Source of the DNA: Nitrosomonas communis
Lineage (GTDB): Bacteria; Pseudomonadota; Gammaproteobacteria; Burkholderiales; Nitrosomonadaceae
Reading direction: 5' to 3'
Assembly (NCBI RefSeq): GCF_900114745.1
Contig: NZ_FOUB01000005.1
Span: 1 to 64,000, forward strand
DNA: 64,000 bases
The notes below the pieces were generated by a model, which was not told the origin of the DNA, ran no database searches, and worked only from the letters and a program-made list of their open reading frames with translations. Both the position numbers and the translations under genes were made by a program. This document shows, piece after piece, positions 42,443-56,723 of this stretch (its first letter is position 1; every line of letters starts with the position of its first letter).

Positions 42443-42458
42443 TGGCGCGATCTTTGCA
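42443..42458 (+). promoter_or_regulatory. Sigma-54 promoter of the accessory cluster
   Basis: TGGCGCGATCTTTGCA matches the sigma-54 consensus (TGGCACG, four bases, TTGCA) with one mismatch and has exact GG-N10-GC spacing. It lies 141 bases upstream of the first cluster ATG on the same strand, and a sigma-54 activator gene ends the cluster. Transcription should start near 42469. No regulator-binding repeats were identified. Confidence 0.75.
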
Positions 42459-42598: not shown

Positions 42599-43273
42599 AT
42601 GCATGATATTGATCGCACAATGATGGAATATGAGCCAGAGATGGAATATGAGCCAGAGATGGAATCTGAAGCTGGTTATGAGTTCGGTGAATTTGAATAT
42701 GCTGATATGGAAGGCATACTCGATGAAGCCGAGGAAATGGACTTGGCAGCGGAATTGCTGGGTATTACAGATGAAGCAGAACTCGATCAGTTTTTCGGAA
42801 AGTTGTTCAAAAAAATCGGAAGCAAGGTAGGTAAATTTATTAAATCTCCGACCGGACACGCACTGAAGGGCATTCTGAAGAGTGCTGCGCAAAAAGCACT
42901 GCCGATGCTAGGCACAGCGTTTGGTGGTCCTGTAGGCGGTGCGCTGGCCAGTCAATTGCTAGAAGCTGGAAACGAAATCTATGGTATGGAGCTGGAAGGG
43001 CTAAGCGAAGAAGATCAGGAGTTTGAAATGGCAAAACAGTTCGTACGTTTTGCCAGTACGGCGGCAGAGCAAGCGGCCGATGCTCCGTCCAATATCGATT
43101 CAAAAGTAGCGGCAAAATCCGCCGCGATAACATCAGCCAAGCAGTATGCGCCTGGCCTGTTACGCCCTGCCCCTTTCACTACGTCCATGTCTACTATGTC
43201 GCTGCCGGGTAGTGGCCGCAGCGGGCGTTGGGTCAAGCGGGGCAGCAAGATCATTCTGTACGGCGTCAAGTAG
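42599..43273 (+). CDS. Acidic-leader protein with cationic amphipathic core
   Basis: A 224-residue protein of no family I can name. The first 45 residues are Glu/Tyr/Met-rich, partly from an 18-base tandem duplication (42623-42658). Residues about 63-85 (FFGKLFKKIGSKVGKFIKS) are cationic and amphipathic, followed by a Gly/Ala-rich hydrophobic stretch (LPMLGTAFGGPVGGALASQLL). Then come GLSEEDQEFEMAKQFVRFA and a basic C-terminus (GRWVKRGSKIILYGV). No signal peptide is present. The ribosome-binding site AATTGGAGGAC precedes the ATG. It is the first gene after the sigma-54 promoter. The layout recalls a leader plus membrane-active peptide, but that is only inference. Confidence 0.75.
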   Translation: MHDIDRTMMEYEPEMEYEPEMESEAGYEFGEFEYADMEGILDEAEEMDLAAELLGITDEAELDQFFGKLFKKIGSKVGKFIKSPTGHALKGILKSAAQKALPMLGTAFGGPVGGALASQLLEAGNEIYGMELEGLSEEDQEFEMAKQFVRFASTAAEQAADAPSNIDSKVAAKSAAITSAKQYAPGLLRPAPFTTSMSTMSLPGSGRSGRWVKRGSKIILYGVK

Positions 43274-43299
43274 TCATTGCATTGATTGGAGTGTCACTC

Positions 43300-44607
43300 A
43301 TGGTGAACAAACCTGCTTATGTGCGCTGGATGTTGATGCAGGAGGCTCGTGCCATGCTAGTTCGGCTGGCTCAGGTAAAACCGTTTGTATTGACCGAGTC
43401 AACTGTGCCGGCGGCAAATTTCTCGTTATCGGCTCAAAGCGCGATCGATCGCTATCTGATGGCGGGGCGGCATGCATTGCAGTTGCAGGTACAAACCTAC
43501 TTGCATTGGCTGCAAGGCCTGGACGACAAGAGCACCCATCCAGTTGAGGCGCAGCAACGTTTGAGTTTACTGCGGTTACGCTTCAACGCAACACTTTCAC
43601 AGCTTGATATTTTTGCAGATGCCTTGACGCAACGCAGTGAATATGAAACTGGTATCAGGTTGGCTGGGCTAGATGTCGTGGCCGCAGATGCCTTGAGGTT
43701 GGAGGATTATTATGTGCCTCCTCCCGTGATCTGTTATTTAGATCGTGGTTCGGGTGCGGCGATCCGCCGGGCCAGGACCCGCTTGCCGGGTGGTGGAGAA
43801 AATCCGGTGGCCGTGATTCGGGTGCCGCGTGAGCGGATGATTGGCAGTGGCATTGCCTCATCATTAATCCATGAGGTTGGTCACCAAGCAGCGGCGCTGC
43901 TGAATCTCGTCAACTCCCTTCGCGTCGTATTGCAACAGCAGGAGCGTGAGGTCAAGGATAGCATTTGGCGTTATTGGGAACGGTGGATATCGGAAATTGT
44001 TGCGGATTTCTGGTCGGTTGCCAGGGTAGGGGTGACTTCAACCCTTGGCTTGATGGGGGTGGTAAGTCTGCCACGGGCTTTTGTCTTTCGCATGAATATG
44101 AATGATTCCCATCCTTTCCCCTGGATCAGGGTCATCCTGAGCTGCGCCATCGGGCAGGCACTTTATCCTCATCCGCAATGGCATCGACTGGCCCAACTCT
44201 GGAAGTCATTTTATCCAAAGGCAACCTTGGATACGGCAGGTTATAGCTTGCTTAATCAGCTTGAAGCCGGGATCCCTGAGTTCATTGACCTGTTAATTCA
44301 CCATCAGCCTCGAAGCTTGCATGGCCAGTCGCTGATAGAGGTCATGGATACCGCCAATCGTCAACCTGATCGTTTAAATGCTTATTTTGAACACTGGCAG
44401 CGGACACCCGCAGCAATGTATCGCACTGCTCCGACTTTGGTATTTGCGGTGATTGGGCAGGCACGATCCGATGGCAGGATGAGTCCGGAACAGGAGAGCG
44501 CAATTTTGGGCAAGCTTCTGACCTATTGGGCAGTGTATAGCACATTGAAGGCCAATACAGCCTGTGTAACGCCTGAGACAGCCCAACCGCCATCGAAGGC
44601 GTGTTAA
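43300..44607 (+). CDS. HEVGH-motif metalloprotease-like protein
   Basis: A 435-residue protein whose centre carries SSLIHEVGHQAAALL (H191-E192-x-x-H195) and, about 40 residues later, ISEIVADFW (E232, D236), the ligand spacing of gluzincin-type zinc peptidases. The rest matches no family I know; the N-terminal third is helical, and no signal peptide or membrane span is clear. I chose ATG 43300 with GGAG nine bases upstream; the open frame begins earlier but overlaps the previous gene. Zinc binding is read from the motif; proteolysis is inferred. Confidence 0.7.
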   Translation: MVNKPAYVRWMLMQEARAMLVRLAQVKPFVLTESTVPAANFSLSAQSAIDRYLMAGRHALQLQVQTYLHWLQGLDDKSTHPVEAQQRLSLLRLRFNATLSQLDIFADALTQRSEYETGIRLAGLDVVAADALRLEDYYVPPPVICYLDRGSGAAIRRARTRLPGGGENPVAVIRVPRERMIGSGIASSLIHEVGHQAAALLNLVNSLRVVLQQQEREVKDSIWRYWERWISEIVADFWSVARVGVTSTLGLMGVVSLPRAFVFRMNMNDSHPFPWIRVILSCAIGQALYPHPQWHRLAQLWKSFYPKATLDTAGYSLLNQLEAGIPEFIDLLIHHQPRSLHGQSLIEVMDTANRQPDRLNAYFEHWQRTPAAMYRTAPTLVFAVIGQARSDGRMSPEQESAILGKLLTYWAVYSTLKANTACVTPETAQPPSKAC

Positions 44608-44665
44608 TGAACCTAGGATGGTGTAGCACTAGGGATGTAATTGATTTTAATTGAGGAGAAATATT

Positions 44666-46453
44666 ATGGAAAAAGATGATATTGATAAAGATACCATCCG
44701 AGTTAGCCATTCCACCGGAACATATAGTGATATAAAAGTATCACCTGAAATCAGTGGCCTGGTGCAGAAAGCGATGGAGTTCTTCGACGGCGGATTCGTC
44801 CGAAAAACAAGCACAACTTTGCAACGCGCTGCGGGACGGCCAACTGAAGATCAGGCACTCTGGGCAGCGATCCGGGATCGAACGAATGCAATCAGCTTTG
44901 AGCGATATGCTGAGTTTATTGATCGGGTGCTTTGCGATTCCAAAGACAGAGGCAGAGCAACTTGCCCCACTGAGTTATGTTCAGATTTCACTGGTGCTAC
45001 CATATCTAGCCTAGGTCCCCCGCCCACAGCCGGCTCGATTGGATCACCTTCAGTTACGGAGAGGCACGACGAATTGCTCGCCCGACCCGGTATATACGGC
45101 GTCGAAGCTTACCAACTGTTAAAACTGGCAACACAAGCCTTTTTGCTGTTTGAAAGCGGAGTGGTGGTCGAAGGCACGAGACATCCTAACACCGGGCGGT
45201 TTGTCGTTCCTACTCCCAGTGGCTTTAGAGACCGAGAATGCGATGATACCGTACCAGTAGAAAAAGCACGGGGTAACCCAGTTACCTTTGGAGCAATCCA
45301 GGGAGAATTGGAAAATTATCTTCAAGCTACCGTAGGCAATGTCAGTGGCAGGGCGCTGCCTTATCTGAAGCGAATCGTCAGCGCCCTTCCTTCGTTGAAT
45401 TCACGCACTGTAGACGAATCAGAGGGATCACCATTTTGCAATAATATTCTGCAACATCGGCTTAGCTGTCCGAGCCTCCTGGAACTTATCTGGTCCTATT
45501 GGCACGAGGAAGGCATGCTGGTGCAAACGATGAATGCCATTGCTCTGCGTTTTCAAAACAAGAAGCGGCATGCACAAGATCCACTGGCAAATCTAGCGCT
45601 TGATCCTTTGCGCCCTCTGAATAATCTCTTCTGGGGATTCATTCAGGATGAGCCTAATCGCTTAAGCATTCAACGCCGCTGCTATGAATACGACAATCAA
45701 TACGGGATTACCCTTGTAGGTAAAGCCGTGCCCATACTGGATTCCGCCGATAGTCGTTCGCAGTTCATCAAGGCGTTTCATAACTTGCTTTACCGTACGG
45801 CGATGTTCTATCGTGAAGACGATGACACTACTGTCACCGCCGATGCCTTCTCATTACTCAATGCCCTGAGGGAAGTTCATATCATCCTCGCCGAGGGGGC
45901 ACATAACCAGTTCGGCGATCTACCATGGACCGCACGCCACGAGATGCTGGTAATGCAATGGATACTGGCGCGGCCCGAGATGAAGGAATTTCTGCGGGGC
46001 CGTTATTCGGTGCCGTATCAAGAAACGTGGATGGGGGCTGTGGATGACATGAAACGGCTACAGGACTGGACGGATGTCACAATCACCCATTTCCACGAAC
46101 TTGGGACTTATGGTGAACAGATTTTACTCTCTATCCGCTATGGCGATTGGATCGCTGCTAACGATCAGGAACAAGCTAGAAATTGGGCGCGTGACTGGCG
46201 GCCTGAAATTCAGCGCTATATGCATGCATACCATGCAGTATCAGGGGTCGATCTGACTTCGGAAACCGTCGATACCCGCACAGCGGAAGCGCGTTATGCA
46301 CAGCCATCCCTACTGCTCCAAAAACGACTGGCTACGCAGCAGCCAAGAAATAGGGTTACCGGTCCTATCCAACGTTTGGCTAATACTCGGCGGACTGCGT
46401 ATGCATCATTGACAAATAAAATGGCGAACCGTCTGCGCATTGATCGGAAATGA
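44666..46453 (+). CDS. Large protein of unknown function
   Basis: A 595-residue, mostly helical protein with no recognised domain, signal peptide or membrane span. Notable conserved-looking stretches are DPLRPLNNLFWGFIQDEPNRL, RRCYEYDNQYGI, HNLLYRTAMFYREDDDTTV, AEGAHNQFGDLPWTARHEML and FHELGTYGEQILLSIRYGDW. Their density suggests a real, constrained family. I chose ATG 44666 with TTGAGGAG upstream. It is the third gene of the cluster. Confidence 0.75.
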   Translation: MEKDDIDKDTIRVSHSTGTYSDIKVSPEISGLVQKAMEFFDGGFVRKTSTTLQRAAGRPTEDQALWAAIRDRTNAISFERYAEFIDRVLCDSKDRGRATCPTELCSDFTGATISSLGPPPTAGSIGSPSVTERHDELLARPGIYGVEAYQLLKLATQAFLLFESGVVVEGTRHPNTGRFVVPTPSGFRDRECDDTVPVEKARGNPVTFGAIQGELENYLQATVGNVSGRALPYLKRIVSALPSLNSRTVDESEGSPFCNNILQHRLSCPSLLELIWSYWHEEGMLVQTMNAIALRFQNKKRHAQDPLANLALDPLRPLNNLFWGFIQDEPNRLSIQRRCYEYDNQYGITLVGKAVPILDSADSRSQFIKAFHNLLYRTAMFYREDDDTTVTADAFSLLNALREVHIILAEGAHNQFGDLPWTARHEMLVMQWILARPEMKEFLRGRYSVPYQETWMGAVDDMKRLQDWTDVTITHFHELGTYGEQILLSIRYGDWIAANDQEQARNWARDWRPEIQRYMHAYHAVSGVDLTSETVDTRTAEARYAQPSLLLQKRLATQQPRNRVTGPIQRLANTRRTAYASLTNKMANRLRIDRK

Positions 46454-46488
46454 TTGCAACTCGGATTAAAATCTGAAGGAGATCAATT

Positions 46489-48042
46489 ATGAAATATGCA
46501 TTGAATCTAGAACCCGAAATCGTTGGCGATGCCTTCGAAATGAATGGGTTTGAGGGTGAGGCAACCTATAGCTTTTGGGAACCGGGGGGGAAGCCGGATT
46601 ACGAGTACGAAACAAGCGCTGGATTCGACACAGAGTTAGGTGAGGCGGAATGGAAAGCCAAAATCAGAAGGGACCAACGTATGCCCATGCGTCCAGCCGG
46701 ACTTAGACCTGCTGCTTACCGAAGGCCTGGATCATCAAGCCAACCTAAATCTCGTGGTAATTATCCATTTCATAAACCTTTTGGGAAGTATAGGCGCTGG
46801 CCTGGGGGCGTCATAACAGCACCCCATGTTTGTACCTGTCCAGCGCCTAACTGTCCACGTCATGGCAGCGAGTATGTGCGGTGGGTGCAGAGTTCATTGA
46901 ATCAAATCATGAATCTGCGCTTGGCAGTTACCGGCATCATGGATGTGCCAACACGCAGTGCCTTGCGCAGTTTTCAAGAGAAACAGGGCTTGCCAGTCGA
47001 TGGCATCGCGGGGCCGGAATCCAAGGATGCTTTGATAGGAGCGAAAAGTGGAAAATTATCAGGAATCGGCGCTACAAAACCTGCTGAGCCTGCCATGCCG
47101 GAACCAGCCGAACCCGCTAGCACAAACCCAGCTGCAGAATTCAAATTCGAATGGGAGACGTTCAGCGATGAGTTCGAAGATGCCGAGGAAATGACCGAGG
47201 CCGAGCCGGAATGGTTAGGTTCGGAGTGGGAAGAGACGCTCGATCCTGAAATTACTATGCTTTCCGACGGAGCCCTCGATGGCTGGCCGGGGGAGTGGGA
47301 GGTAGGTCGTGATGCCTCACTGGCGGCGATCGCGGAGCAGATCGCGGCAAGGCGCCCAATTAGTGTTTCGGCGATGGAGTTAGAGGAAGAGAAGCCTGCG
47401 CGGCGCTGGACCCGTTGCTTCAAGGGCGCGGACGTCGAGCGAGTCAGGAAGGTTTATCAGGACAATACCATCGCGGCCGGGGCCAACAGCGTCGATCGTG
47501 CCTCCTGCATCGTGATGTTCAACGTGGCGCTAGGGCAGCTGCTGAAGTTAAAGACGAAAGAGTCCCAAGCCCGGAGCAAGAGCAGCCGCAAGGTGCAAAT
47601 GGGAGCGCTCACCACCGAGACGATCGAGAAAGCAATGGCACAGCTTCGCACGGCGGGTTTCGCCAGACCGGCAATCTCAATTGATTTCTTCGATCGCCGC
47701 AACAAGACTGCGGGAACCCTGAGACCGGAGCGTCTCAAGAAGAGCGTGCAGAAAGCAGTGCTCAACCTGTCGACAGTCAAGGGTTGTTGGTACGCCTATG
47801 GTCTCTCTATTATGGACGGCTACCACAGCGTGCTGCTCCTAATCGACAAGACCGGCAATGACGGGAAGATCTATTGGCTCGACCAATTCAGCTCGGACAT
47901 TGACGACGATGTCACCACTACCCTCGACCAGCGCATCACCACCAAGACCCAGGGGTGGTGGCAGGCGGTGAAGGACCGGAAGAACGTCGGCTATAACACC
48001 CCAGCCCGCGTCTGGCCACTTCGAAAGCTGATCTCTTCTTAA
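46489..48042 (+). CDS. Peptidoglycan-binding protein with candidate cysteine-hydrolase domain
   Basis: A 517-residue protein in three parts. Residues 1-60 are acidic and aromatic (FEMNGFEGEATYSFWEPGG). Residues about 120-180 form a PG_binding_1 domain (VRWVQSSLNQIMNLRL, VTGIMDVPTRSALRSFQEKQ, GLPVDGIAGPESKDAL). A Pro/Glu-rich linker leads to a C-terminal domain of about 210 residues with a possible Cys-His-Asp triad: C340 in DRASCIVMF, H446 in DGYHSVLLLID, D465 in IYWLDQF. No family was recognised for that domain. GC content rises sharply from about 47,400, so this part may have been acquired separately. The ribosome-binding site is GAAGGAGAT. Confidence 0.75.
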   Translation: MKYALNLEPEIVGDAFEMNGFEGEATYSFWEPGGKPDYEYETSAGFDTELGEAEWKAKIRRDQRMPMRPAGLRPAAYRRPGSSSQPKSRGNYPFHKPFGKYRRWPGGVITAPHVCTCPAPNCPRHGSEYVRWVQSSLNQIMNLRLAVTGIMDVPTRSALRSFQEKQGLPVDGIAGPESKDALIGAKSGKLSGIGATKPAEPAMPEPAEPASTNPAAEFKFEWETFSDEFEDAEEMTEAEPEWLGSEWEETLDPEITMLSDGALDGWPGEWEVGRDASLAAIAEQIAARRPISVSAMELEEEKPARRWTRCFKGADVERVRKVYQDNTIAAGANSVDRASCIVMFNVALGQLLKLKTKESQARSKSSRKVQMGALTTETIEKAMAQLRTAGFARPAISIDFFDRRNKTAGTLRPERLKKSVQKAVLNLSTVKGCWYAYGLSIMDGYHSVLLLIDKTGNDGKIYWLDQFSSDIDDDVTTTLDQRITTKTQGWWQAVKDRKNVGYNTPARVWPLRKLISS

Positions 48043-48196
48043 GTTCGTACGAAAAAGTAGAGCTTTGCCAGAGGGTACAAACATGAAAGGAAAAATGGAG
48101 ACGGAGTGAGTTTCATGCTGACTTCATGCCCGCGTCGGATGCGTCTGTCTGTGAGTTGGCCCAATAATCAAACGAGCTTGTGAGAGGAGATGTACC

Positions 48197-51100
48197 ATGA
48201 CATATCAATTTCTTTTACGGAATGAACCATTTGAGTTAGATCCACAATTCGAATCCGATTTATTTGAGGAAAAGAATGGAAACGAGCTCGAATTCGCAAT
48301 AGGAAAAAAATGTAAGAATGATTGGTGTAGCCCAAATTACATCCAATGGGTGCAAAAGTCATTAAATCAACTTATAAAGACCGGAACAAAGCTTAGAGAA
48401 GATGGTTTTCACGACAGCCTCACACTTCGTGCGATTAAAAGTTTTCAAAAACAATATGGTTTAAAGCCCGATGGAGAGTTTGGCCCTATCACGGAAAAAA
48501 CGCTCATTTCCAAGGGGGCGAGTCGACCCCCTGAGCTGAAGCAACTGCCATGTTCGCCTACGAAAGCGGAAACGCTCATCGAAAAACTTAATAAGTACAG
48601 AGGCAACATTCCTCTTCACATTCTATTAGGTTGGATCGAGATCGAATCGGGAAGACAAATTGGCAGAATTACTAATCTTTGTGAAAGAGGTTACTTCCAG
48701 ATTTATCCCGGTGAAGCAAAAAACCGTGGAATAAAAAATCATCAACTGCTCAGCTATGATGAAGACCATTCGATTCAAAGCGGAGTGAAACTGATAAATT
48801 ATTTTATTGCGAGAACGAACATTCTTGTTAAAAAATATGGGCTTCCAAATCATGGCGAAGTGTTTTGGAAAGTAGTGAAGCTACATCATTGGATACCTTC
48901 TGGTCCTGAAAAAATTCTTGCAGATATGCATACACACGGCGTTAAACCTTCGAGCTGGGCTGCTATCACAAGCTACGCTTTAGACCTAAAGAATCGAGGC
49001 AGACTTAAGAAAAAAATAAAACGTGACCCACAACAGGGTATCCACAACGCTGATGAAATGCTGAGAAAAGCTGGTGATTGGCTTAAAAAACTGGAAGCCA
49101 ATAAATCTCTAAGCAAAGAAAGTGATAAGAGTGCTCCCGAACTTGGGTGGGAAGCATACTACGGTAACAGTGATGAGCAAGAGTTTGAGATACAAGATGC
49201 CCCGTCTGTACCCATGCTTTTAAACTGCAAAAAAACTTTGCTCGGTGATACCCTTTGCGTCAAGATCGGTCTTGGGATAAACATTGCGCCAAACAAAGTT
49301 GACAAAAAAACAGGTAAACCAACGCCAGACGCAAAGTTTTTCAAAATCCAACCAATGACCGGCATTTTTATCCCACAAGCTTATGTTCCCAAAAAAGAAG
49401 TGAATATTATTATTTATCTTCATGGACATAAAGGTGCGTATCCGGGAAACGCCGCCACAATTGATGATTATTGGAACGGTAGCAAGTTTCCCTTCTTTGC
49501 GTTACGCGAAGAGGTAAGCGCAAGTGAGCAAAATGTCATATTCGTCGCGCCTACACTTGGCCCACTTTCACAAGCAGGAAATCTGACAACTGCCAAAGGA
49601 TTTGACAGCTTTTTATCTAAGATCTTAGCCGCATTGAACAAACACTTTGTAAGCAAGAGCTCACAGCAAGAAGTCAAAAATATTAGCAGGATAATTCTTG
49701 CCGCACATTCCGGTGGTGGAAGTCCGATGTTGCGGATAGCTGAATTGCAGGGAAGCTCGAACACGTTAAAAATATCGGAATGCTGGGGCTTCGATAGTAT
49801 GTATGGGGAAGTAGAAAAGAGGTGGGCTGATTGGGCAATGTCTCATCGAAATGCAAAGCTCTTTATATATTATTACGACACAGCAAGCAGGTCGAAAATA
49901 CTCGAAAAACTTAGCAAGGAGCGGAATCTTCAAAATGTTTGCGTGCATGGGTGGAAAAAAAAAGATTTTGCCGATTGGGTTAAAACACAACCACTCTTAA
50001 AAAAATCTAATGCAGGTCCACACTTCTGGGTTCCTATCATTTACCTTAAAGAACGAATTCAAAATACACCTTGTCGAGTAAAACAAGTTGCATCATTGTC
50101 ACAATCTCCAGCTCGACAAAGAGAGGTTATATTAAGATTTCCTTCACACAGACGTATGACGATGCAAACCTCGAAGTCGCCTTTCCTTGTACATAATTAC
50201 GAATTTAATCCCACAGCAAAATACCCACTAACGGAAGTGGAACTTTATAAGGGTAAAATCAAACTCGCCAGTGCAGGTTTACCTAAAAAAGGGAATTACG
50301 TTGTTATCAAGGAAGCTCCCGCAGTTTTTTTACCTGAGATTATCCGCAAGGCACGAGAAATAGCCCTCAAGGATAAGAAAAAAGATATTGCCATAAAACT
50401 GAATCCCGACACATGGTTCAGACAGTTCACACGCATTACCTTTTTAGGCCGACGGTTTAAGGATGGACAATACATTCATATCGAAATGGCGAAACTGTTG
50501 AAAACCATCGAAGGGGAATTTATTAAAATCTTAGGGAGCAGCAGTGCGGAAAAAACAGGCGATATATTGTTGAATAACAGTAAAGAAGGCATTTCGGGAT
50601 CAAGAAAAACGTCCTCAACCGCTACATTCTCGATGCACATGTTTGGCTTGGCTGTTGATGTCAATTATCTTGGAAATCCTTACATCGAATCAGAAAATGA
50701 CATCAACGCTCTCAACAATGTCTTAAAAAGTGCCGCCCTGTTGATGAATACAGAAGTATTGGCCTATAAAAAAGAAACAAGAGGAAAATTTAAAGACAGA
50801 TTCGATTATGTTCAGGCGCTGGATACTGTCTTGGAGAATTATTTCAAATTATTAGACAGTCCAACTGAACTTTTGAAATACCTACGAGATTCACAATCGT
50901 CTGACTGGCGTAGATTAACTTTATCGGAAGCAAAAACAAAAATTCAGAGCAACCTAAATAACCTCGCAGGATTCCTTGCGCGTGGTAAATATAAAGGTTA
51001 TTTCAAGAAAAATGCAATCCTGAATTTTGATAAACGTTTTGTCGTTGGCATGGAGGCCATGGGCTTGCATTGGGGCGGTCATTACGGCGATATGATGCAC

Positions 51101-51271
51101 TTCGATATGCGACCAACAGGTGTCGGCTACTACATCGAAAAAGCACGTATCGCATACAGCAAAAATGTAAAAGAACAAGCTAGATATTTATTGAGAGAGA
51201 AAAAATACGGTGAATATACGCCTGACAAACATTTCCAAAATATCGGTCAACGTGTCGCGGCCCTTGGATAA
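48197..51271 (+). CDS. Modular peptidoglycan hydrolase (PG-binding, transglycosylase-like, alpha/beta hydrolase, VanY-like)
   Basis: A 1024-residue protein with four recognisable parts. After an acidic N-terminus comes a PG_binding_1 domain (about 50-105, IQWVQKSLNQLIKTG and YGLKPDGEFGPITEKTL). Next is a lysozyme-fold-like segment (about 125-260) with LLGWIEIESGRQIG and RGYFQIYPGEAKNRG. From about 345-630 is an alpha/beta hydrolase: IIIYLHGHKGAYPG and the nucleophile elbow LAAHSGGGSPM (Ser about 504). The C-terminal third is a VanY-like LAS carboxypeptidase: SMHMFGLAVDVNYLG (about 812) and DMMHFDMRPTG (about 965), with the zinc-binding His and Asp. No signal peptide. AT-rich relative to its neighbours. 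The ribosome-binding site is GAGAGGAGAT. Confidence 0.8.
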   Translation: MTYQFLLRNEPFELDPQFESDLFEEKNGNELEFAIGKKCKNDWCSPNYIQWVQKSLNQLIKTGTKLREDGFHDSLTLRAIKSFQKQYGLKPDGEFGPITEKTLISKGASRPPELKQLPCSPTKAETLIEKLNKYRGNIPLHILLGWIEIESGRQIGRITNLCERGYFQIYPGEAKNRGIKNHQLLSYDEDHSIQSGVKLINYFIARTNILVKKYGLPNHGEVFWKVVKLHHWIPSGPEKILADMHTHGVKPSSWAAITSYALDLKNRGRLKKKIKRDPQQGIHNADEMLRKAGDWLKKLEANKSLSKESDKSAPELGWEAYYGNSDEQEFEIQDAPSVPMLLNCKKTLLGDTLCVKIGLGINIAPNKVDKKTGKPTPDAKFFKIQPMTGIFIPQAYVPKKEVNIIIYLHGHKGAYPGNAATIDDYWNGSKFPFFALREEVSASEQNVIFVAPTLGPLSQAGNLTTAKGFDSFLSKILAALNKHFVSKSSQQEVKNISRIILAAHSGGGSPMLRIAELQGSSNTLKISECWGFDSMYGEVEKRWADWAMSHRNAKLFIYYYDTASRSKILEKLSKERNLQNVCVHGWKKKDFADWVKTQPLLKKSNAGPHFWVPIIYLKERIQNTPCRVKQVASLSQSPARQREVILRFPSHRRMTMQTSKSPFLVHNYEFNPTAKYPLTEVELYKGKIKLASAGLPKKGNYVVIKEAPAVFLPEIIRKAREIALKDKKKDIAIKLNPDTWFRQFTRITFLGRRFKDGQYIHIEMAKLLKTIEGEFIKILGSSSAEKTGDILLNNSKEGISGSRKTSSTATFSMHMFGLAVDVNYLGNPYIESENDINALNNVLKSAALLMNTEVLAYKKETRGKFKDRFDYVQALDTVLENYFKLLDSPTELLKYLRDSQSSDWRRLTLSEAKTKIQSNLNNLAGFLARGKYKGYFKKNAILNFDKRFVVGMEAMGLHWGGHYGDMMHFDMRPTGVGYYIEKARIAYSKNVKEQARYLLREKKYGEYTPDKHFQNIGQRVAALG

Positions 51272-52101: not shown

Positions 52102-52620
52102 ATGACGGCTATTTCTACCAAATCGAACGAGGGTGCCCTTGTTATCACGACGAATGACGGCCATCTTGATTCTGCGTCTGCTGTGCTTTTATTAAAGGCC
52201 ACAAATCCGGAATATAACCAACCCGTGTTACATATCAAACAAGCAGGTGAACATGGAGGTGCTGCCTCCATTAGGATCGATGACCAAAATCCTGACATCG
52301 AGTTCGTCGAAACTGATCAAATAGCTCCTGCAGAAAAATATGAGATTGCCGTTCAGTCGGACAAGCTTCAGATCAACGGCCGCAACGCGAGTGATACCAG
52401 CTTCGAGACCATCGCCGTGTTTCAGCGACGGGCCGTGGGTGGCAATATCGGTTTAGGAACCACTAGCCAATTTGGAGCAGGGCAGGGTGTAATCGCGATT
52501 GCCAATGCTTCGGTCGCTCCGTCCGTGAATCCTGCTGATGGGGGAATCTTGCTTGTTGAGGACGGAGCGCTTATGTACCGGGGTTCGAAGGGAACGGTAA
52601 CCAGGATCGCGCCCGCTTAG
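52102..52620 (+). CDS. Tail-fibre-like structural protein
   Basis: A 172-residue protein rich in beta-strands. Its C-terminus, GQGVIAIANASVAPSVNPA followed by GGILLVEDGALMYRGSKGT and VTRIAPA, matches the short repeat found at the ends of many phage tail-fibre and virion proteins. The N-terminal region (IRIDDQNPDIEFVETDQ) looks like a trimeric stalk segment. No signal peptide is seen. It is the only virion-like protein in the cluster; no sheath, tube or baseplate gene accompanies it. AGGAAAAATACG precedes the ATG. Confidence 0.65.
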   Translation: MTAISTKSNEGALVITTNDGHLDSASAVLLLKATNPEYNQPVLHIKQAGEHGGAASIRIDDQNPDIEFVETDQIAPAEKYEIAVQSDKLQINGRNASDTSFETIAVFQRRAVGGNIGLGTTSQFGAGQGVIAIANASVAPSVNPADGGILLVEDGALMYRGSKGTVTRIAPA

Positions 52621-52760: not shown

Positions 52761-54260
52761 ATGGGTGCAGATTACATTTGGCCGCTCAGCAGGAGCTCCA
52801 TGCCCAATGCCATGAATACTTCATTCGGGCCACGCATCAATACTAATCGGTGGGATTTCCACGATGGCATAGACCTGCCGGCCGAGAAGGGCGCAAAGAT
52901 TTATGCTATGCGCGAGGGAACAGTGCGCTTTGCCGGAAATAAAGGTCAGGATGGGTACAGTTCGCGCCACATTGTCCTCGAGGTCGACGACCCCAATGAC
53001 GGGAAAATATATCTTGTCCACCTGCATCTCGACAGCATCAACGAGGATGTGACACCCAGTGCGAATGTCGTGCAGGGTCAGGAGCTCGGCACTGTCGGTG
53101 AGGATGATGCGACGTATCCACATTTACATATTGAGTTTCTGCAAGACACGCCTGATTCCAAGGCGCAAACTAGCCGTCACCCTTTGCGGTATCTCCCTTA
53201 TTTTAACACGATGAATTTTACTGCACCGGTTATCGATCGCTTCAACCGGTTTGGGATGGGTATGACAACGCGACTCTTATTCGGCACCTCTAACAAATCA
53301 GAGGGCGATTTGCTCAGGGTCGAAGTGGACCTTCTGAGCGGTTCCCAGCTAATTAACACCCGAGTCGTTGATTTTCACGACAAGGCAACCATCAGCAAGA
53401 AGAGAGGAAACAGCGACACATTGATATTTACCAACGATATTGGGGTGGAAGGCTATCAGAAGTCCCGTATGAATGATCCAAAACATCCACGAACTGACCT
53501 TCGCTATGGCATTCTGGTGCGCAACTTACCCGACGAGTGCGATACTCTTATCGCCCGTGTTTGCGATGTTGGCGGCAATATGGTTATGAGTGCGCCCATT
53601 CCCGTTCCAAATCAGACCGCAACAGATGAGTTTGTTGATTTCGAAGATGGCGTCATGCCGCCCGCAGGCTGGAGACGCGTGAGAAGTACCACGGGGAGCG
53701 GCACGACGGTGACAAACGATGCCACCGCTGCTCACTCAGGTACGCGCGGCATGCTCTGCATCGATAACTCGACAACGGAGACCAACCCACAGCGCGCAGG
53801 TATCGAACTAACGTTGCCGACTGGTCGCTTTGAGTGGGTTGCCGAAGGCCGGTTTAAGCCAACAACGTTGGATTTGAAAGGGGATGAATCGATCCAGTTG
53901 CTTCGTTTTCATGATGGCGAGAACTTGAGCGTTGCGGCACGTATTATCTGTCACAAGGGAGGTTTGCTGTTAGCAGGAATCGTGGCAAATGACTCAAAGC
54001 TCGAAAACAGTTCGGCAATTATTAAACTCGATGAGTGGCGTCGATGGCGATTGCATCTGCTGCGGATTGGAACTCGCGAGAGTACCGCGGTGCTTTATCT
54101 GGACAATGATGGCGTACTAGAAGAGCGTGTCCGTCTTAACTGGGATTCGACAGTTAATGAGCCATCGATTCTGCGGGCTGGCATTGCTCGATCGCCGGCT
54201 GGAAAGAAAGCGATTGTACTGGTCGATGAGCTGCGGGTGAGCGAATCCGGCATCCCATAG
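52761..54260 (+). CDS. M23-type (LytM) metallo-endopeptidase with C-terminal beta-sandwich domain
   Basis: A 499-residue protein. The first 140 residues are an M23 domain with the zinc ligands in WDFHDGIDLPAEKG (HxxxD) and TYPHLHIEF (HxH), plus YLVHLHLDSI; it should cleave peptide cross-links in the wall. The middle (about 150-290) is a beta-rich domain, and the last 200 residues (FVDFEDGVMPPAGWRRV, then GRFEWVAEGRFKP, LYLDNDGVLEERVRLNW) look like a concanavalin-type lectin fold. No signal peptide. The ribosome-binding site GAGAGGAGG is strong. Confidence 0.85.
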   Translation: MGADYIWPLSRSSMPNAMNTSFGPRINTNRWDFHDGIDLPAEKGAKIYAMREGTVRFAGNKGQDGYSSRHIVLEVDDPNDGKIYLVHLHLDSINEDVTPSANVVQGQELGTVGEDDATYPHLHIEFLQDTPDSKAQTSRHPLRYLPYFNTMNFTAPVIDRFNRFGMGMTTRLLFGTSNKSEGDLLRVEVDLLSGSQLINTRVVDFHDKATISKKRGNSDTLIFTNDIGVEGYQKSRMNDPKHPRTDLRYGILVRNLPDECDTLIARVCDVGGNMVMSAPIPVPNQTATDEFVDFEDGVMPPAGWRRVRSTTGSGTTVTNDATAAHSGTRGMLCIDNSTTETNPQRAGIELTLPTGRFEWVAEGRFKPTTLDLKGDESIQLLRFHDGENLSVAARIICHKGGLLLAGIVANDSKLENSSAIIKLDEWRRWRLHLLRIGTRESTAVLYLDNDGVLEERVRLNWDSTVNEPSILRAGIARSPAGKKAIVLVDELRVSESGIP

Positions 54261-54477: not shown

Positions 54478-55281
54478 GTGATCATTGATTGCCACTGCCA
54501 TGCTGGAACAGGCGATGGCTTGACTGGCCCCTGGGACACCAGGGCATCATTGCACGATTATCTGCGACGCGCATCAGCAGCAGGAATACACAAAACGGTA
54601 CTGTTTGCCGCTTTTCATTCAAACTATGCCATAGCCAATGAAGAGGTGGCACGCATCGTAGCGAGTAATCCTAAGCGTTTTTTCGGCTTTGCTTTTGTTC
54701 ATCCTGCACGTGATCGGGGACGTGTGCATGAACTGGTCAAGGTTGCCGTTGAGTGCTATGGTTTCGTGGGCATCAAAGTTCACCGCCATGATGCCCCCAT
54801 TACACGCGAGATCTGTGCAACTGCGCGCATTTACAACTTGCCGGTGCTGTACGATGTAGCGGGTGAGGTATCTGTCTGCGAGCTACTTGCTCAAGAATAT
54901 CCTGATGTTAACTTCATCATTCCGCATCTCGGCAGTTTTGCCGACGACTGGCGTGCTCAACTTGCTGTGATCGACCATCTGGTTCGCCATCCGAATATCT
55001 ACGCTGATACCTCTGGCATACGGCGCTTTGATTTGCTGAAACAAGCCGTCAAACGGGCGGGAGCAAATAAACTCTTGTTTGGCTCCGACGGGCCGTGGCT
55101 GCATCCTGGAGTTGAACTGACCAAGATCAAGGCATTAGGACTGCCGCCATCCCAGGAAAACTTAATTTCAGGAGGAAATTTTCTAAATTTAATCAGCGTA
55201 GCTAAAAATGGCAAATCATTAATAGCGACAGGCAAGTTAGCTAATTCAGCGAAAATGATTACTGAAAACGCTCGGTTTTAG
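54478..55281 (+). CDS. Amidohydrolase-2 family metal-dependent hydrolase
   Basis: A 267-residue TIM-barrel protein: IIDCHCHAGTGD at the N-terminus (HxH metal site), GFVGIKVHRHDAP, NFIIPHLGSFADDW and LLFGSDGPWLHPG carry the remaining metal ligands. The start is GTG with GGGAGG seven bases upstream. It is the last gene in the row, convergent with the regulator. Substrate unknown; it may be a passenger rather than part of the wall-active set. The 217 bases before it hold no supported gene. Confidence 0.85.
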   Translation: MIIDCHCHAGTGDGLTGPWDTRASLHDYLRRASAAGIHKTVLFAAFHSNYAIANEEVARIVASNPKRFFGFAFVHPARDRGRVHELVKVAVECYGFVGIKVHRHDAPITREICATARIYNLPVLYDVAGEVSVCELLAQEYPDVNFIIPHLGSFADDWRAQLAVIDHLVRHPNIYADTSGIRRFDLLKQAVKRAGANKLLFGSDGPWLHPGVELTKIKALGLPPSQENLISGGNFLNLISVAKNGKSLIATGKLANSAKMITENARF

Positions 55282-55355: not shown

Positions 55356-56723
55356 CTAAAAGTTTTCCTGCCGCTGCGCTGCCCGCCGCATCTGAAGTGC
55401 GCGGTCAGTAACGCCCAGACGCTGAGCGGCTTTTTGCAGGTTGCCGCTAGCTTCATCCACAGCAATTCGGATAGCAATGTTTTTACTTTCCCGACTGATG
55501 GTTTTGAGACTTACACCACGCGTCAAGGCGACGCGGATAGCACGCTCAAAGCCATCGTCGCACCATGTGCTCCAGCAATTAGTATGATTTGGTCGGTCTT
55601 CCGGAGGGATGCAGCCTACCGTGATTGCTCCTTGCCCGGCGTAACGGCAGAGCATACGTGCTACAACCTGTTTGAGATCACGTACGTTGCCAGGGTATTC
55701 GTGGCGCAGCAGGTATTCCTGTACCGGAGCATCCAGCTCAGGGGGGTCTTGATTGGGGAGGAATACCTTCAGGAAGTGATTGGCCAAGGGAAGAATGTCT
55801 TCAGGACGCTCCCGCAAAGGCGGCAAATGACAAATATAACTAGCGATACGGTAATAGAGATCAGCGCGGAATTCACCGCGTTGCACTTGTGCCCAAAGGT
55901 CGCGATTAGTGGCGCAAATCAAGCGGAAGGAAGTTCGCTGCCAAGCATTGCCACCGACGCGTTTGAAGGTATGTTCTTGTATAACCCGCAATAGCTGGGC
56001 TTGCAGTGTCAGAGGAAGTTCCCCTACTTCATCGAGAAATAGCGTGCCGCCGTTGGCGAGCGCGAACACCCCATCACGGGAAGACACCGCGCCAGTAAAA
56101 GCACCCCGCTCATGACCGAAGAACTCGCTGCCGGATAATTCCGGCACGATCGTGGTGCAATCCTGGATGACCAAATTGCCCTTGTTCGGACGGGGATCCA
56201 AGGCATGCACGAGATTTGCCAGCAATTCCTTACCGGTACCGCTTTCTCCAAGGATCAAAACCGAAGCATCGGTGAAATGGGCTACTTCCACCACTTGACG
56301 TAGAATCGTCTTCAGGACCTGGCTTTCTCCCACTAATACATTTTGCACTGCGGGTGAATATACCAAACGATGCACCGCCCCCCAGCGTTGGAGACGAGAA
56401 ATGATCTCATGGATGAGGGTGTTATCTTGCGAGCTCACCAAGACGTCAGAAGCGCCTGCTTCCAATAGCTGCCAGACGGCATCACCCGGAATAGTCGTAT
56501 GACAACAGGCAAGCACGGCTATCTGGCCATTACGGCTAAGTTCGCGTAATTGCTTGCAGATTTTTGGCGTAACCTCATTACTAAAAATCACTCCTGCAAT
56601 ACAGGAAAAACCATTATCATAGTCTTGAACTTCGATGTCCTGTTGATTCAATCGATCAACAATTTCACCTGCAGCTTGTTTCTGACAGCGACCCATCCAG
56701 CGAAACCAGACTTTGATAGTCAT
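55356..56723 (-). CDS. Sigma-54-dependent transcriptional activator with degenerate receiver
   Basis: A 455-residue NtrC-type activator. The N-terminal 120 residues have a receiver-like outline, but the phospho-acceptor Asp is not evident (IAGVIFSNEVT at that place), so it may sense something other than phosphorylation. The AAA+ domain is complete: Walker A GESGTGKE (159-166), the sigma-54 contact loop GAFTGA (207-212), Walker B TLFLDEVGEL and the arginine-finger region. The C-terminus has a Fis-type helix-turn-helix (LQKAAQRLGVTDRALQMR). The ATG at 56723 has GGAGGT upstream. It probably activates the promoter at 42443. Confidence 0.92.
   Translation of the reverse strand: MTIKVWFRWMGRCQKQAAGEIVDRLNQQDIEVQDYDNGFSCIAGVIFSNEVTPKICKQLRELSRNGQIAVLACCHTTIPGDAVWQLLEAGASDVLVSSQDNTLIHEIISRLQRWGAVHRLVYSPAVQNVLVGESQVLKTILRQVVEVAHFTDASVLILGESGTGKELLANLVHALDPRPNKGNLVIQDCTTIVPELSGSEFFGHERGAFTGAVSSRDGVFALANGGTLFLDEVGELPLTLQAQLLRVIQEHTFKRVGGNAWQRTSFRLICATNRDLWAQVQRGEFRADLYYRIASYICHLPPLRERPEDILPLANHFLKVFLPNQDPPELDAPVQEYLLRHEYPGNVRDLKQVVARMLCRYAGQGAITVGCIPPEDRPNHTNCWSTWCDDGFERAIRVALTRGVSLKTISRESKNIAIRIAVDEASGNLQKAAQRLGVTDRALQMRRAAQRQENF

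What the first reader, a model, noticed from the sequence alone, without database searches (positions are those of the whole stretch)
42599..49200. Shared acidic/aromatic N-terminal leader on proteins that lack signal peptides
The proteins at 42599, 46489 and 48197 begin with segments of alternating Glu/Asp and Phe/Tyr/Trp (EYEPEMEYEPEM; EMNGFEGEATYSFWE; FELDPQFESDLFEEKNGNE). None has a Sec or Tat signal, although their domains act on peptidoglycan, which is outside the cytoplasm. A common leader on co-located exported-type enzymes could be a recognition tag for an unknown export route or for packaging.
Basis: inference. Interest (0 to 1): 0.7.

Follow-up and report, generated by a model that had tools for sequence, protein, structure and literature searches.

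The report
Shared leader tag on wall-cutting enzymes
Several proteins here, at least one of them a likely cell-wall cutter without the usual export signal, start with the same unusual acidic tag, and the tag recurs with the same neighbouring genes in very distant bacteria, which suggests an undescribed way of handling or delivering such enzymes.

Summary
The leader is real and not chance. Of 48 window ORFs of at least 150 aa, only the three named ones have the acidic/aromatic N-terminus. They lie in an apparently undescribed cassette: tagged small protein(s) "SMALL", an HExxH protein, a ~600-aa protein (p600), tagged cargo, an amidohydrolase and a sigma-54 activator. Relatives come, by record titles, from about eight phyla; p600 and SMALL accompany HExxH in 59 of 59 long loci. 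A leader profile from other taxa, run on 101 whole genomes, gave 8 hits at E<=0.0022, all in leaders of cassette cargo, and one marginal stray; it missed the window's own genome. Of 47 cargo, 27 carry PG_binding_1. Sec-like starts: 0 of 16 PG_binding_1 places in cassettes, 25 of 37 elsewhere. Strong sigma-54 sites precede SMALL in 48 of 85 loci. Two divergent loci keep HExxH beside long-acidic-leader wall hydrolases. Best reading (0.4): a sorting/processing tag read by HExxH.

The parts
42443..42458 (+). predicted sigma-54 (-24/-12) promoter TGGCGCGATCTTTGCA upstream of the cassette
   Evidence: 10 of 11 consensus positions, single exact occurrence in the window; sites scoring >=10 near the start of the SMALL operon in 48 of 85 loci against 6 of 340 other upstream regions
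42599..43273 (+). SMALL: tag-bearing protein, 224 aa (acidic leader about residues 1-40, helical glycine-rich module, C-terminal SGRWxxRGxxI hairpin)
   Evidence: no Pfam family, no NCBIfam match above cut-off; AlphaFold model: leader low-confidence, helices 43-183, hairpin 210-221; N- and C-terminal motifs conserved
42599..42718 (+). acidic/aromatic leader of SMALL (MHDIDRTMMEYEPEMEYEPEM...)
43300..44607 (+). HExxH protein (predicted zinc peptidase); start inferred from alignment
   Evidence: 56-sequence alignment A6: H190 E191 G193 H194, E231 and D235 invariant, 13 of 76 invariant columns are Arg; no Pfam, NCBIfam or PHROG match at the limits used and no PDB-sequence match
44651..46453 (+). 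p600: conserved, mainly helical protein without a recognised fold
   Evidence: alignment A5, 33 invariant columns in 60 sequences; AlphaFold pLDDT 72.9, no Foldseek match at E<=0.001
46489..48042 (+). cargo 1: leader + PG_binding_1 + C-terminal region without a recognised family
   Evidence: PG_binding_1 E 4e-12 at residues 128-182; leader scored 12.0 bits by a profile trained on other taxa
46489..46668 (+). leader of cargo 1
48197..51271 (+). cargo 2: leader + PG_binding_1 + region with an AHSGGG motif + Peptidase_M15_4
   Evidence: AHSGGG at about residue 503
48197..48304 (+). leader of cargo 2
   Evidence: 11.6 bits by the held-out leader profile
52102..52620 (+). 172-aa ORF inside the cassette, membership uncertain
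   Evidence: weak PHROG match only (phrog_4013, E 5.7e-6)
52761..54260 (+). M23 peptidase inside the cassette, with neither leader nor Sec-like N-terminus
   Evidence: Peptidase_M23 E 5.7e-16
54478..55281 (+). AH: amidohydrolase (Amidohydro_2)
   Evidence: present in 53 of 59 long loci
55356..56723 (-). REG: sigma-54 activator (GAFTGA present), divergent, closes the cassette
   Evidence: Sigma54_activat E 2.5e-57; GAFTGA; present in 54 of 59 long loci

Best explanation
The leader is a sorting/processing tag of a sigma-54-controlled cassette that produces antibacterial or wall-remodelling proteins. SHOWN by computation: the tag is shared by SMALL proteins and by wall-binding or wall-hydrolysing cargo, it is tied to this gene neighbourhood, the cassette's PG-binding cargo lack Sec-like N-termini, and in most loci the SMALL operon carries a sigma-54-like promoter beside its own activator gene. 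INFERRED: (1) the acidic tag docks on the basic HExxH protein, which trims it; (2) the tag keeps cargo soluble and inactive, or escorts it, until then; (3) the tagged, glycine-zipper-like SMALL protein helps cargo pass or permeabilise a membrane; (4) mature wall hydrolases act outside the producing cell. The exit itself (a general secretion system, vesicles or lysis) is not identified.
For: Leader specificity: a leader HMM trained without Nitrosomonas and without L034 scores >=10 bits in 26 of 36 cargo (27 of the 36 are not held out), 0 of 780 shuffles and 8 of 1,141 background ORFs; by position and sequence I judge all 8 to be cassette cargo missed by my first selection. Held-out rows: 3 of 9 Nitrosomonas/L034 cargo score >=10, both window cargo among them (12.0, 11.6), and so do 11 Nitrosomonas proteins in which cargo is fused to SMALL (11.7-30.5). 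Search of 101 whole genomes: 8 hits at E<=0.0022, all in leaders of cassette cargo, in 8 of the 12 genomes with SMALL; one marginal stray (E 0.083) in a genome without it. Strict box 1: 24 of 47 cargo, 7 of 771 background ORFs, 20 of 2,350 shuffles. A looser box is in 16 of 40 S1/other and 22 of 75 S2 SMALL proteins against 13 of 764 background ORFs; 0 of 25 S3. Synteny: p600 59, SMALL 59, AT 57, REG 54, AH 53 of 59 long loci. Sigma-54 site: >=10/11 in 48 of 85 loci against 6 of 340 other upstream regions. Charge: HExxH mean +13.2 (55 of 56 positive, 13 invariant Arg), SMALL leader mean -10.4. Divergent cassettes (HExxH of G775 28% identical to the window's) have cargo with long acidic/aromatic starts on M74 or M23 wall peptidases: 2 of 2 such loci read.
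Against: None of the six window proteins checked has a clear membrane-spanning segment (max 19-residue KD mean 1.1-1.6), so no channel was found in the cassette. Leader binding or cleavage by HExxH is untested and no cleavage site was identified. The profile missed the window's own genome and three other SMALL-bearing genomes at E<=0.1. Six of nine held-out cargo rows score below 10 bits, where some shuffles also score (best shuffle 9.5). In 14 of 59 long loci no leader cargo was found by profile (>=8 bits) or box. 48197 does not match the looser box. The M23 protein at 52761 lies in the cassette without a leader. p600 is itself acidic (mean -10). The two divergent cassettes lack the sigma-54 site (best scores 6 and 0 of 11). 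No immunity-type ORF with a signal sequence was recognised between p600 and REG in the loci of <=56% GC (judged by eye; four ORFs there have moderately hydrophobic starts: two on the opposite strand in L030, one in L041 and a 71-aa window ORF), which is odd for wall toxins delivered to kin.
Confidence: 0.4

Rival explanations
1. Propeptide, no export route: the acidic leader pairs with the following basic linker and keeps the hydrolases inactive in the cytoplasm. The HExxH peptidase removes it when the sigma-54 programme is switched on, and the enzymes act on self or neighbours after lysis of the producer (programmed or accidental).
For: Leader mean charge -7.4 followed by 60 residues of mean charge +9.0 in the 24 box-1 cargo; no channel found among the proteins checked; no clear immunity gene; no T6SS TssC or sheath found in this genome.
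Against: SMALL bears the tag but no recognised hydrolase domain and no such linker (its leader runs into a helical module). No lysis gene was recognised in the window cassette, though none was searched for specifically. Box 1 is conserved in sequence, more than mere charge neutralisation needs.
Confidence: 0.25
2. Assembly tag: leaders recruit cargo onto a cytoplasmic particle built from SMALL and/or p600, which is later released.
For: SMALL is usually present in two or more copies per locus (54 of 59) and is fused to cargo domains in Nitrosomonas; SMALL is predicted as a helical module after a disordered leader.
Against: No shell or sheath family among the Pfam matches of the window cassette; no PDB fold match at E<=0.001 for SMALL or p600. 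SMALL bears the same kind of tag as cargo, which fits a client better than a receptor.
Confidence: 0.15
3. The leader is a substrate signal for a general secretion system encoded elsewhere (type I, II or IV).
For: No channel found in the cassette, yet PG-binding cargo lack Sec-like N-termini. These systems were not searched for.
Against: A host range from Pseudomonadota to Chloroflexi and Planctomycetia makes one shared general system less likely. T6SS is unlikely: TssC in 12 of 101 genomes, none of them the 12 with SMALL.
Confidence: 0.1
4. Convergent low-complexity acidic starts without a dedicated function.
For: Acidic leaders vary in length and repeat number, and alignment outside box 1 is poor.
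Against: Box-1 enrichment, the held-out profile rows and the neighbourhood linkage.
Confidence: 0.05

Closest known systems
PEP-CTERM / exosortase (EpsH) sorting system
   Same: A short homology tag on diverse proteins, matched to a co-occurring processing-enzyme candidate; sigma-54-type sites upstream; environmental bacteria (PMC1569441: abstract and passages seen).
   Different: The tag there is C-terminal with a transmembrane helix, nearly always on proteins with signal peptides, and the enzyme is an 8-TM membrane protein. Here the tag is N-terminal and acidic, and the enzyme candidate is an HExxH protein without a clear membrane segment.
T6SS effectors with an N-terminal glycine zipper (Tde1)
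   Same: A glycine-zipper region (repeated GxxxG) in an effector-like protein; in Tde1 it is needed for crossing the target membrane (PMC10240207: abstract and part 1 of the Discussion read). SMALL has a mean of 9.5 GxxxG against 4.2 in shuffles.
   Different: No TssC in the 12 relatives that carry SMALL; no sequence relation tested or claimed.
Polymorphic wall-targeting effectors (PG_binding plus variable hydrolase)
   Same: Similar N-terminal parts with variable C-terminal domains: M74, Amidase_2, GH25, glucosaminidase, M15, PLD, GIY-YIG, trypsin; M23 in a divergent cassette.
   Different: No immunity-type gene recognised beside them in the loci read for it; leader not covered by a matched Pfam or NCBIfam family in the tables shown.
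RiPP leader peptides with a dedicated peptidase
   Same: A leader and a cassette-encoded peptidase candidate (the comparison is recalled, not from a call).
   Different: Leaders sit on large folded proteins; no RiPP modification enzyme appears among the Pfam matches.

Membership tests
PEP-CTERM/exosortase | C-terminal PEP motif, TM helix and basic cluster on cargo | tested here: not met
   the shared motif is N-terminal and window cargo 1 and 2 have no TM-like segment
PEP-CTERM/exosortase | multi-TM EpsH partner | tested here: not met
   the conserved partner HExxH has max KD19 1.45 and no Pfam family
T6SS effector | genome encodes the T6SS sheath (TssC/VipB) | tested here: not met
   PF05943 in 12 of 101 genomes, none of them the 12 with SMALL, own genome included
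extracellular contractile injection system / tailocin cargo | phage-type sheath in the genome | tested here: not met
   PF04984 not found in the own genome; found in 4 of the 12 SMALL-bearing genomes
Sec substrate | hydrophobic N-terminal signal | tested here: not met
   0 of 16 cassette PG_binding_1 places (one an 11-aa fragment, one at a contig end) against 25 of 37 elsewhere reach KD12>=2.0; heuristic, no dedicated predictor
Tat substrate | twin-arginine motif plus hydrophobic region | tested here: inconclusive
   no hydrophobic region; no dedicated predictor run
zinc metallopeptidase (HExxH...E clan) | HExxH and downstream Glu conserved | tested here: met
   H190 E191 H194 E231 D235 invariant in the 56 aligned sequences; HEAGH/EVAAD and HESGH/EIAAD in two divergent forms
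zinc metallopeptidase (HExxH...E clan) | peptidase activity and leader as substrate | not testable with these tools
   needs biochemistry
sigma-54-dependent regulon | -24/-12 promoter and GAFTGA activator | tested here: met
   window site 10 of 11 and activator with GAFTGA; 37 of 85 loci score below 10 and the two divergent cassettes have no site
phage or prophage lysis module | relatives in phage records | tested here: not met
   no match for HExxH (an L036 relative) or the window SMALL in 50,697 phage records; 68 viral stretches matched a pattern, none a relative of HExxH

The most novel reading that the evidence does not exclude
A previously undescribed protein-delivery system, spread over about eight bacterial phyla, in which an N-terminal acidic/aromatic tag routes Sec-independent wall hydrolases and glycine-zipper-like proteins to a dedicated HExxH peptidase (and p600) for maturation and exit from the cell, under its own sigma-54 activator.
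Probability: 0.27. Interest if true: 0.92.

Novelty: categorically new. Interest (0 to 1): 0.73.

Why it matters
Three core proteins without a confident family in Pfam, NCBIfam, PHROGs or PADLOC (one p600 relative, L050, has an N-terminal CarboxypepD_reg match) travel together across distant phyla with tagged wall-targeting proteins and their own regulator. If the tag routes or activates these enzymes, it is a new kind of sorting signal and a handle for finding new antibacterial enzymes. It gives a direct test: clip, swap or delete a 40-residue leader. The label 'categorically new' refers to the parts and their arrangement, not to a proven mechanism.

Tried and rejected
Rejected: T6SS cargo, contractile-particle cargo in this genome, phage lysis module, known defence system (only the AAA part of the regulator matches RtcR/PspF-type models, plus one weak 13.5-bit match of cargo 2), chance composition.

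Led nowhere: Pfam, NCBIfam and PDB sequence searches for SMALL, HExxH and p600. SMALL had only sub-threshold matches: NCBIfam E 0.042, PHROGs from E 0.0095, and designed helical proteins plus two weak natural ones in the PDB. Foldseek for p600 and SMALL gave nothing at E<=0.001; VIA-align for p600 gave Z up to 3.1 only. A weak match does not prove a new fold. Profile comparison of p600 and SMALL with their positional counterparts in the divergent cassette was not significant. The leader-composition score with free choice of start did not separate cassette from other PG_binding_1 proteins (9 of 16 against 24 of 37), so composition alone is not diagnostic. The paper searches answered listed no paper that I recognised as describing this cassette; bioRxiv and most subscription journals are not held, so prior description is not excluded.

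Dropped rows and dependence: one search used 59 of 80 loci (21 with less than 7 kb downstream or 1.5 kb upstream left out). One search skipped low-scoring or partial SMALL matches and listed 140 of 148. The 47 cargo of A4 were picked by leader score plus hand additions, so their leader rate is not independent; the held-out tests are the Nitrosomonas and L034 rows. Cassette limits were set by hand. One search read minus-strand loci in the wrong orientation and was replaced. Of the six genomes found, I read the loci of three (G775, G751, G538). G825 was fetched but not examined, G652 was not fetched beyond its search stretch, and the sixth is the window's own.


Full report
1. THE OBSERVATION. 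The window's ORFs at 42599, 46489 and 48197 begin with the quoted segments. Among 48 non-overlapping window ORFs of at least 150 aa, only these three have at least 10 E/D and 5 F/Y/W in their first 45 residues. None has a hydrophobic N-terminal stretch. Pfam finds nothing in 42599, PG_binding_1 in 46489, and PG_binding_1 plus M15_4 in 48197. So 'peptidoglycan enzymes' fits 48197, partly fits 46489, and does not fit 42599.

2. THE NEIGHBOURHOOD. 42599 has relatives in 12 of 101 genomes searched (the window's own included), all in the window's genus. It also has relatives on four Rhizobium, Ensifer and Paraburkholderia records. The next gene, a 430-450 aa protein with an invariant HExxH...E/D pattern, found 268 related places in a collection of one genome per species, of which the best 80 were kept. 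By record titles, many of them metagenome-assembled, they come from Nitrosomonas, Methylococcales, Nitrospira, Bradyrhizobium, Massilia, Variovorax, Janthinobacterium, myxobacteria, Acidobacteria, Planctomycetia, Chloroflexi, Verrucomicrobia and Rokubacteria. In the 59 of 80 loci with enough flanking DNA, a relative of the ~600-aa protein (p600) and of SMALL is present in all 59 (two or more SMALL in 54), the PLP enzyme (AT) in 57, the sigma-54 activator (REG) in 54 and the amidohydrolase (AH) in 53. No AT was found in the window. Within Pseudomonadota the HExxH gene is sporadic: 4 of 398 sampled genomes, the window's own included.

3. THE TAG. Cargo leaders align around a box M-x(1-9)-[F/L]-[E/D/N/K]-x-x-P-[F/W/L/I/Y/M]. 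The box is in 24 of 47 cargo, 7 of 771 background ORFs and 20 of 2,350 shuffles. A looser box also occurs in two SMALL types (16 of 40 S1/other, 22 of 75 S2; 0 of 25 S3) against 13 of 764 background ORFs and 27 of 2,800 shuffles. A leader HMM trained without Nitrosomonas and the closest relative L034 scores at least 10 bits in 26 of 36 cargo, most of which are not held out, and in 0 of 780 shuffles (best 9.5). Of nine held-out cargo rows, three score above 10 (17.3 in L027; 12.0 and 11.6, the two window cargo); the others score 9.5, 6.0, 5.3, 3.7, 0.0 and -0.7. Eleven further held-out Nitrosomonas rows, in which cargo is fused to a SMALL module, score 11.7 to 30.5. The fused proteins of L033 and L054 are not among the 30 best SMALL/core rows printed. 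Eight of 1,141 background ORFs score at least 10, and by position and sequence I judge all eight to be cassette cargo missed by my first selection. As a wider test, a profile from 18 leaders of other taxa was run over 101 whole genomes in six frames: nine genomes gave one hit each at E<=0.1. Eight hits (E 3.5e-7 to 0.0022) are in the leaders of cassette cargo; the ninth (E 0.083, partial) is in a genome without SMALL. The window's own genome and three other SMALL-bearing genomes were missed.

4. WHAT CARRIES THE TAG. Of 47 cargo, 27 have PG_binding_1, 9 PG_binding_3, 5 OmpA, 4 M74, 4 Amidase_2, 2 DUF2272, 2 trypsin, 2 GIY-YIG, and one each GH25, glucosaminidase, PLD, M15_4, extensin-like and M35-type; a cargo can have more than one. 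In the 12 SMALL-bearing genomes, 53 PG_binding_1 places were examined. A Sec-like hydrophobic start (most permissive start codon, KD12>=2.0) is present in 0 of 16 inside cassettes and 25 of 37 outside; one of the 16 is an 11-aa fragment and one is at a contig end. The threshold is a heuristic, not a signal-peptide predictor. No ORF between p600 and REG was recognised as a wall-toxin immunity gene in the loci of <=56% GC (judged from the printed list; four ORFs have moderately hydrophobic starts).

5. CONTROL OF EXPRESSION. REG has the sigma-54 interaction domain and GAFTGA. A -24/-12 site scoring at least 10 of 11 lies in the -400..+250 region of the first SMALL gene in 48 of 85 loci, and at least 9 in 71 of 85. 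Mononucleotide shuffles (20 per locus) give 0.4% at 10 and 4.8% at 9 or more. Real upstream regions of other ORFs in the same loci give 6 of 340 and 32 of 340; the full 11 is seen in 23 of 85 against 0 of 340. The loci are not independent of one another. The window site is 42443-42458.

6. THE CORE PROTEINS. SMALL: AlphaFold gives a low-confidence leader, a confident helical module and a C-terminal hairpin formed by the conserved SGRWxxRGxxI motif. It has a mean of 9.5 GxxxG motifs against 4.2 in shuffles, which may partly reflect glycine clustering. HExxH: mean net charge +13.2, 55 of 56 positive, 13 invariant Arg; SMALL leaders average -10.4. This complementarity is the main reason for proposing that HExxH binds the tag. 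p600: acidic (mean -10), a mainly helical model with no PDB match at E<=0.001. None of the six window proteins checked (SMALL, HExxH, p600, two cargo, M23) has a clear transmembrane-like segment; the highest 19-residue mean is 1.59, in the M23 protein. AH and REG were not checked.

7. A DIVERGENT CASSETTE. The HExxH profile also found G026, a genome of the same genus without a SMALL match. Its HExxH gene lies near a 995-aa protein with a long acidic/aromatic start followed by PG_binding_1 and M74 domains. A search with that HExxH gene found a second such locus, G775, of the same class, where the cargo has a similar start, M23 and PG_binding_1. In both, the first 250 residues show a strong excess of acidic residues (94 E/D against 10 K/R; 59 against 17). 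The HExxH proteins of the two are 48% identical to each other, and the G775 one is 28% identical to the window's over 304 residues. The other two genes are not significantly related to p600 or SMALL, and no sigma-54 site is seen. So the HExxH gene together with an acidic-leader wall hydrolase is the part that persists.

8. BLOCK EXCHANGE. The window's SMALL, HExxH and p600 are 70, 82 and 74% identical to those of Candidatus Methylobacter favarea (L034), but only 50-52, 60-66 and 43-45% to those of four other loci of the genus (L026, L028, L033, L036); one further genome, G018 (L027), shares the window's version (88, 92, 74%). Against Nm132 (L028), the flanking RibBA, RibE and TypA (90, 83, 96%) and the cassette's AH and REG (82, 79%) are close. 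The core therefore looks exchanged as a block at one chromosomal site, which would fit a tag that must match its machinery. This is inference.

9. MECHANISM. I commit to a sorting/processing tag read by HExxH (0.4). Rivals are an inhibitory propeptide with release by lysis (0.25), an assembly tag (0.15), a signal for a general secretion system (0.1) and a functionless convergence (0.05). No T6SS TssC was found in the 12 SMALL-bearing genomes, and no contractile sheath in the window's genome. Nothing here shows that any cargo leaves the cell.

10. COMPARISON WITH THE KNOWN. The nearest parallel in logic is PEP-CTERM/exosortase, also a short tag with a co-occurring enzyme and sigma-54-type sites (PMC1569441, abstract and passages seen), but tag position, chemistry and enzyme differ and membership is not met. 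The glycine-zipper effector Tde1 (PMC10240207, abstract and part 1 of the Discussion read) is a parallel for SMALL only. The paper searches answered listed nothing that I recognised as this cassette; the library holds no bioRxiv preprints and few subscription journals.

On rereading the calls I narrowed the membrane-segment, T6SS and 'no family' statements to what was examined, and added the held-out misses, the non-independence of loci and the G018 exception.

Noticed in passing
window 42599-46453 against L034, L028, L027: SMALL, HExxH and p600 of the window are closer to a Methylobacter cassette than to four other Nitrosomonas loci compared (G018/L027 shares the window's version), while flanks, AH and REG are Nitrosomonas-like: apparent block exchange at the same rib-typA site.
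   Followed up: partly
L178 (5086-13235), L188 (4892-12530): A divergent four-gene cassette: HExxH gene with a wall hydrolase that has a very long acidic/aromatic start, a 777-821 aa protein and a 370-377 aa protein, without a sigma-54 site.
   Followed up: partly
window 52761-54260: M23 peptidase inside the cassette with neither the leader nor a Sec-like start.
   Followed up: no
window 48197-51271, about residue 503: AHSGGG motif, esterase/lipase-like, between the PG-binding and M15 parts of cargo 2; Pfam gives no family there.
   Followed up: no
L026, L040, L041, L051: An ORF of about 480 aa, M20-peptidase-like by eye, sits between cargo and amidohydrolase in several Nitrosomonas loci and one Nitrospira locus; no family search was run on it.
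   Followed up: no
L023 21215-21943, L093 14546-15928, L030 5618-11104 (-): A second leader style with an N-terminal CxCxxC knuckle before the acidic stretch, on S3-type SMALL proteins and on some cargo.
   Followed up: partly
G000 (whole genome of the window): No T6SS TssC and no phage sheath family match found in the window's genome.
   Followed up: yes
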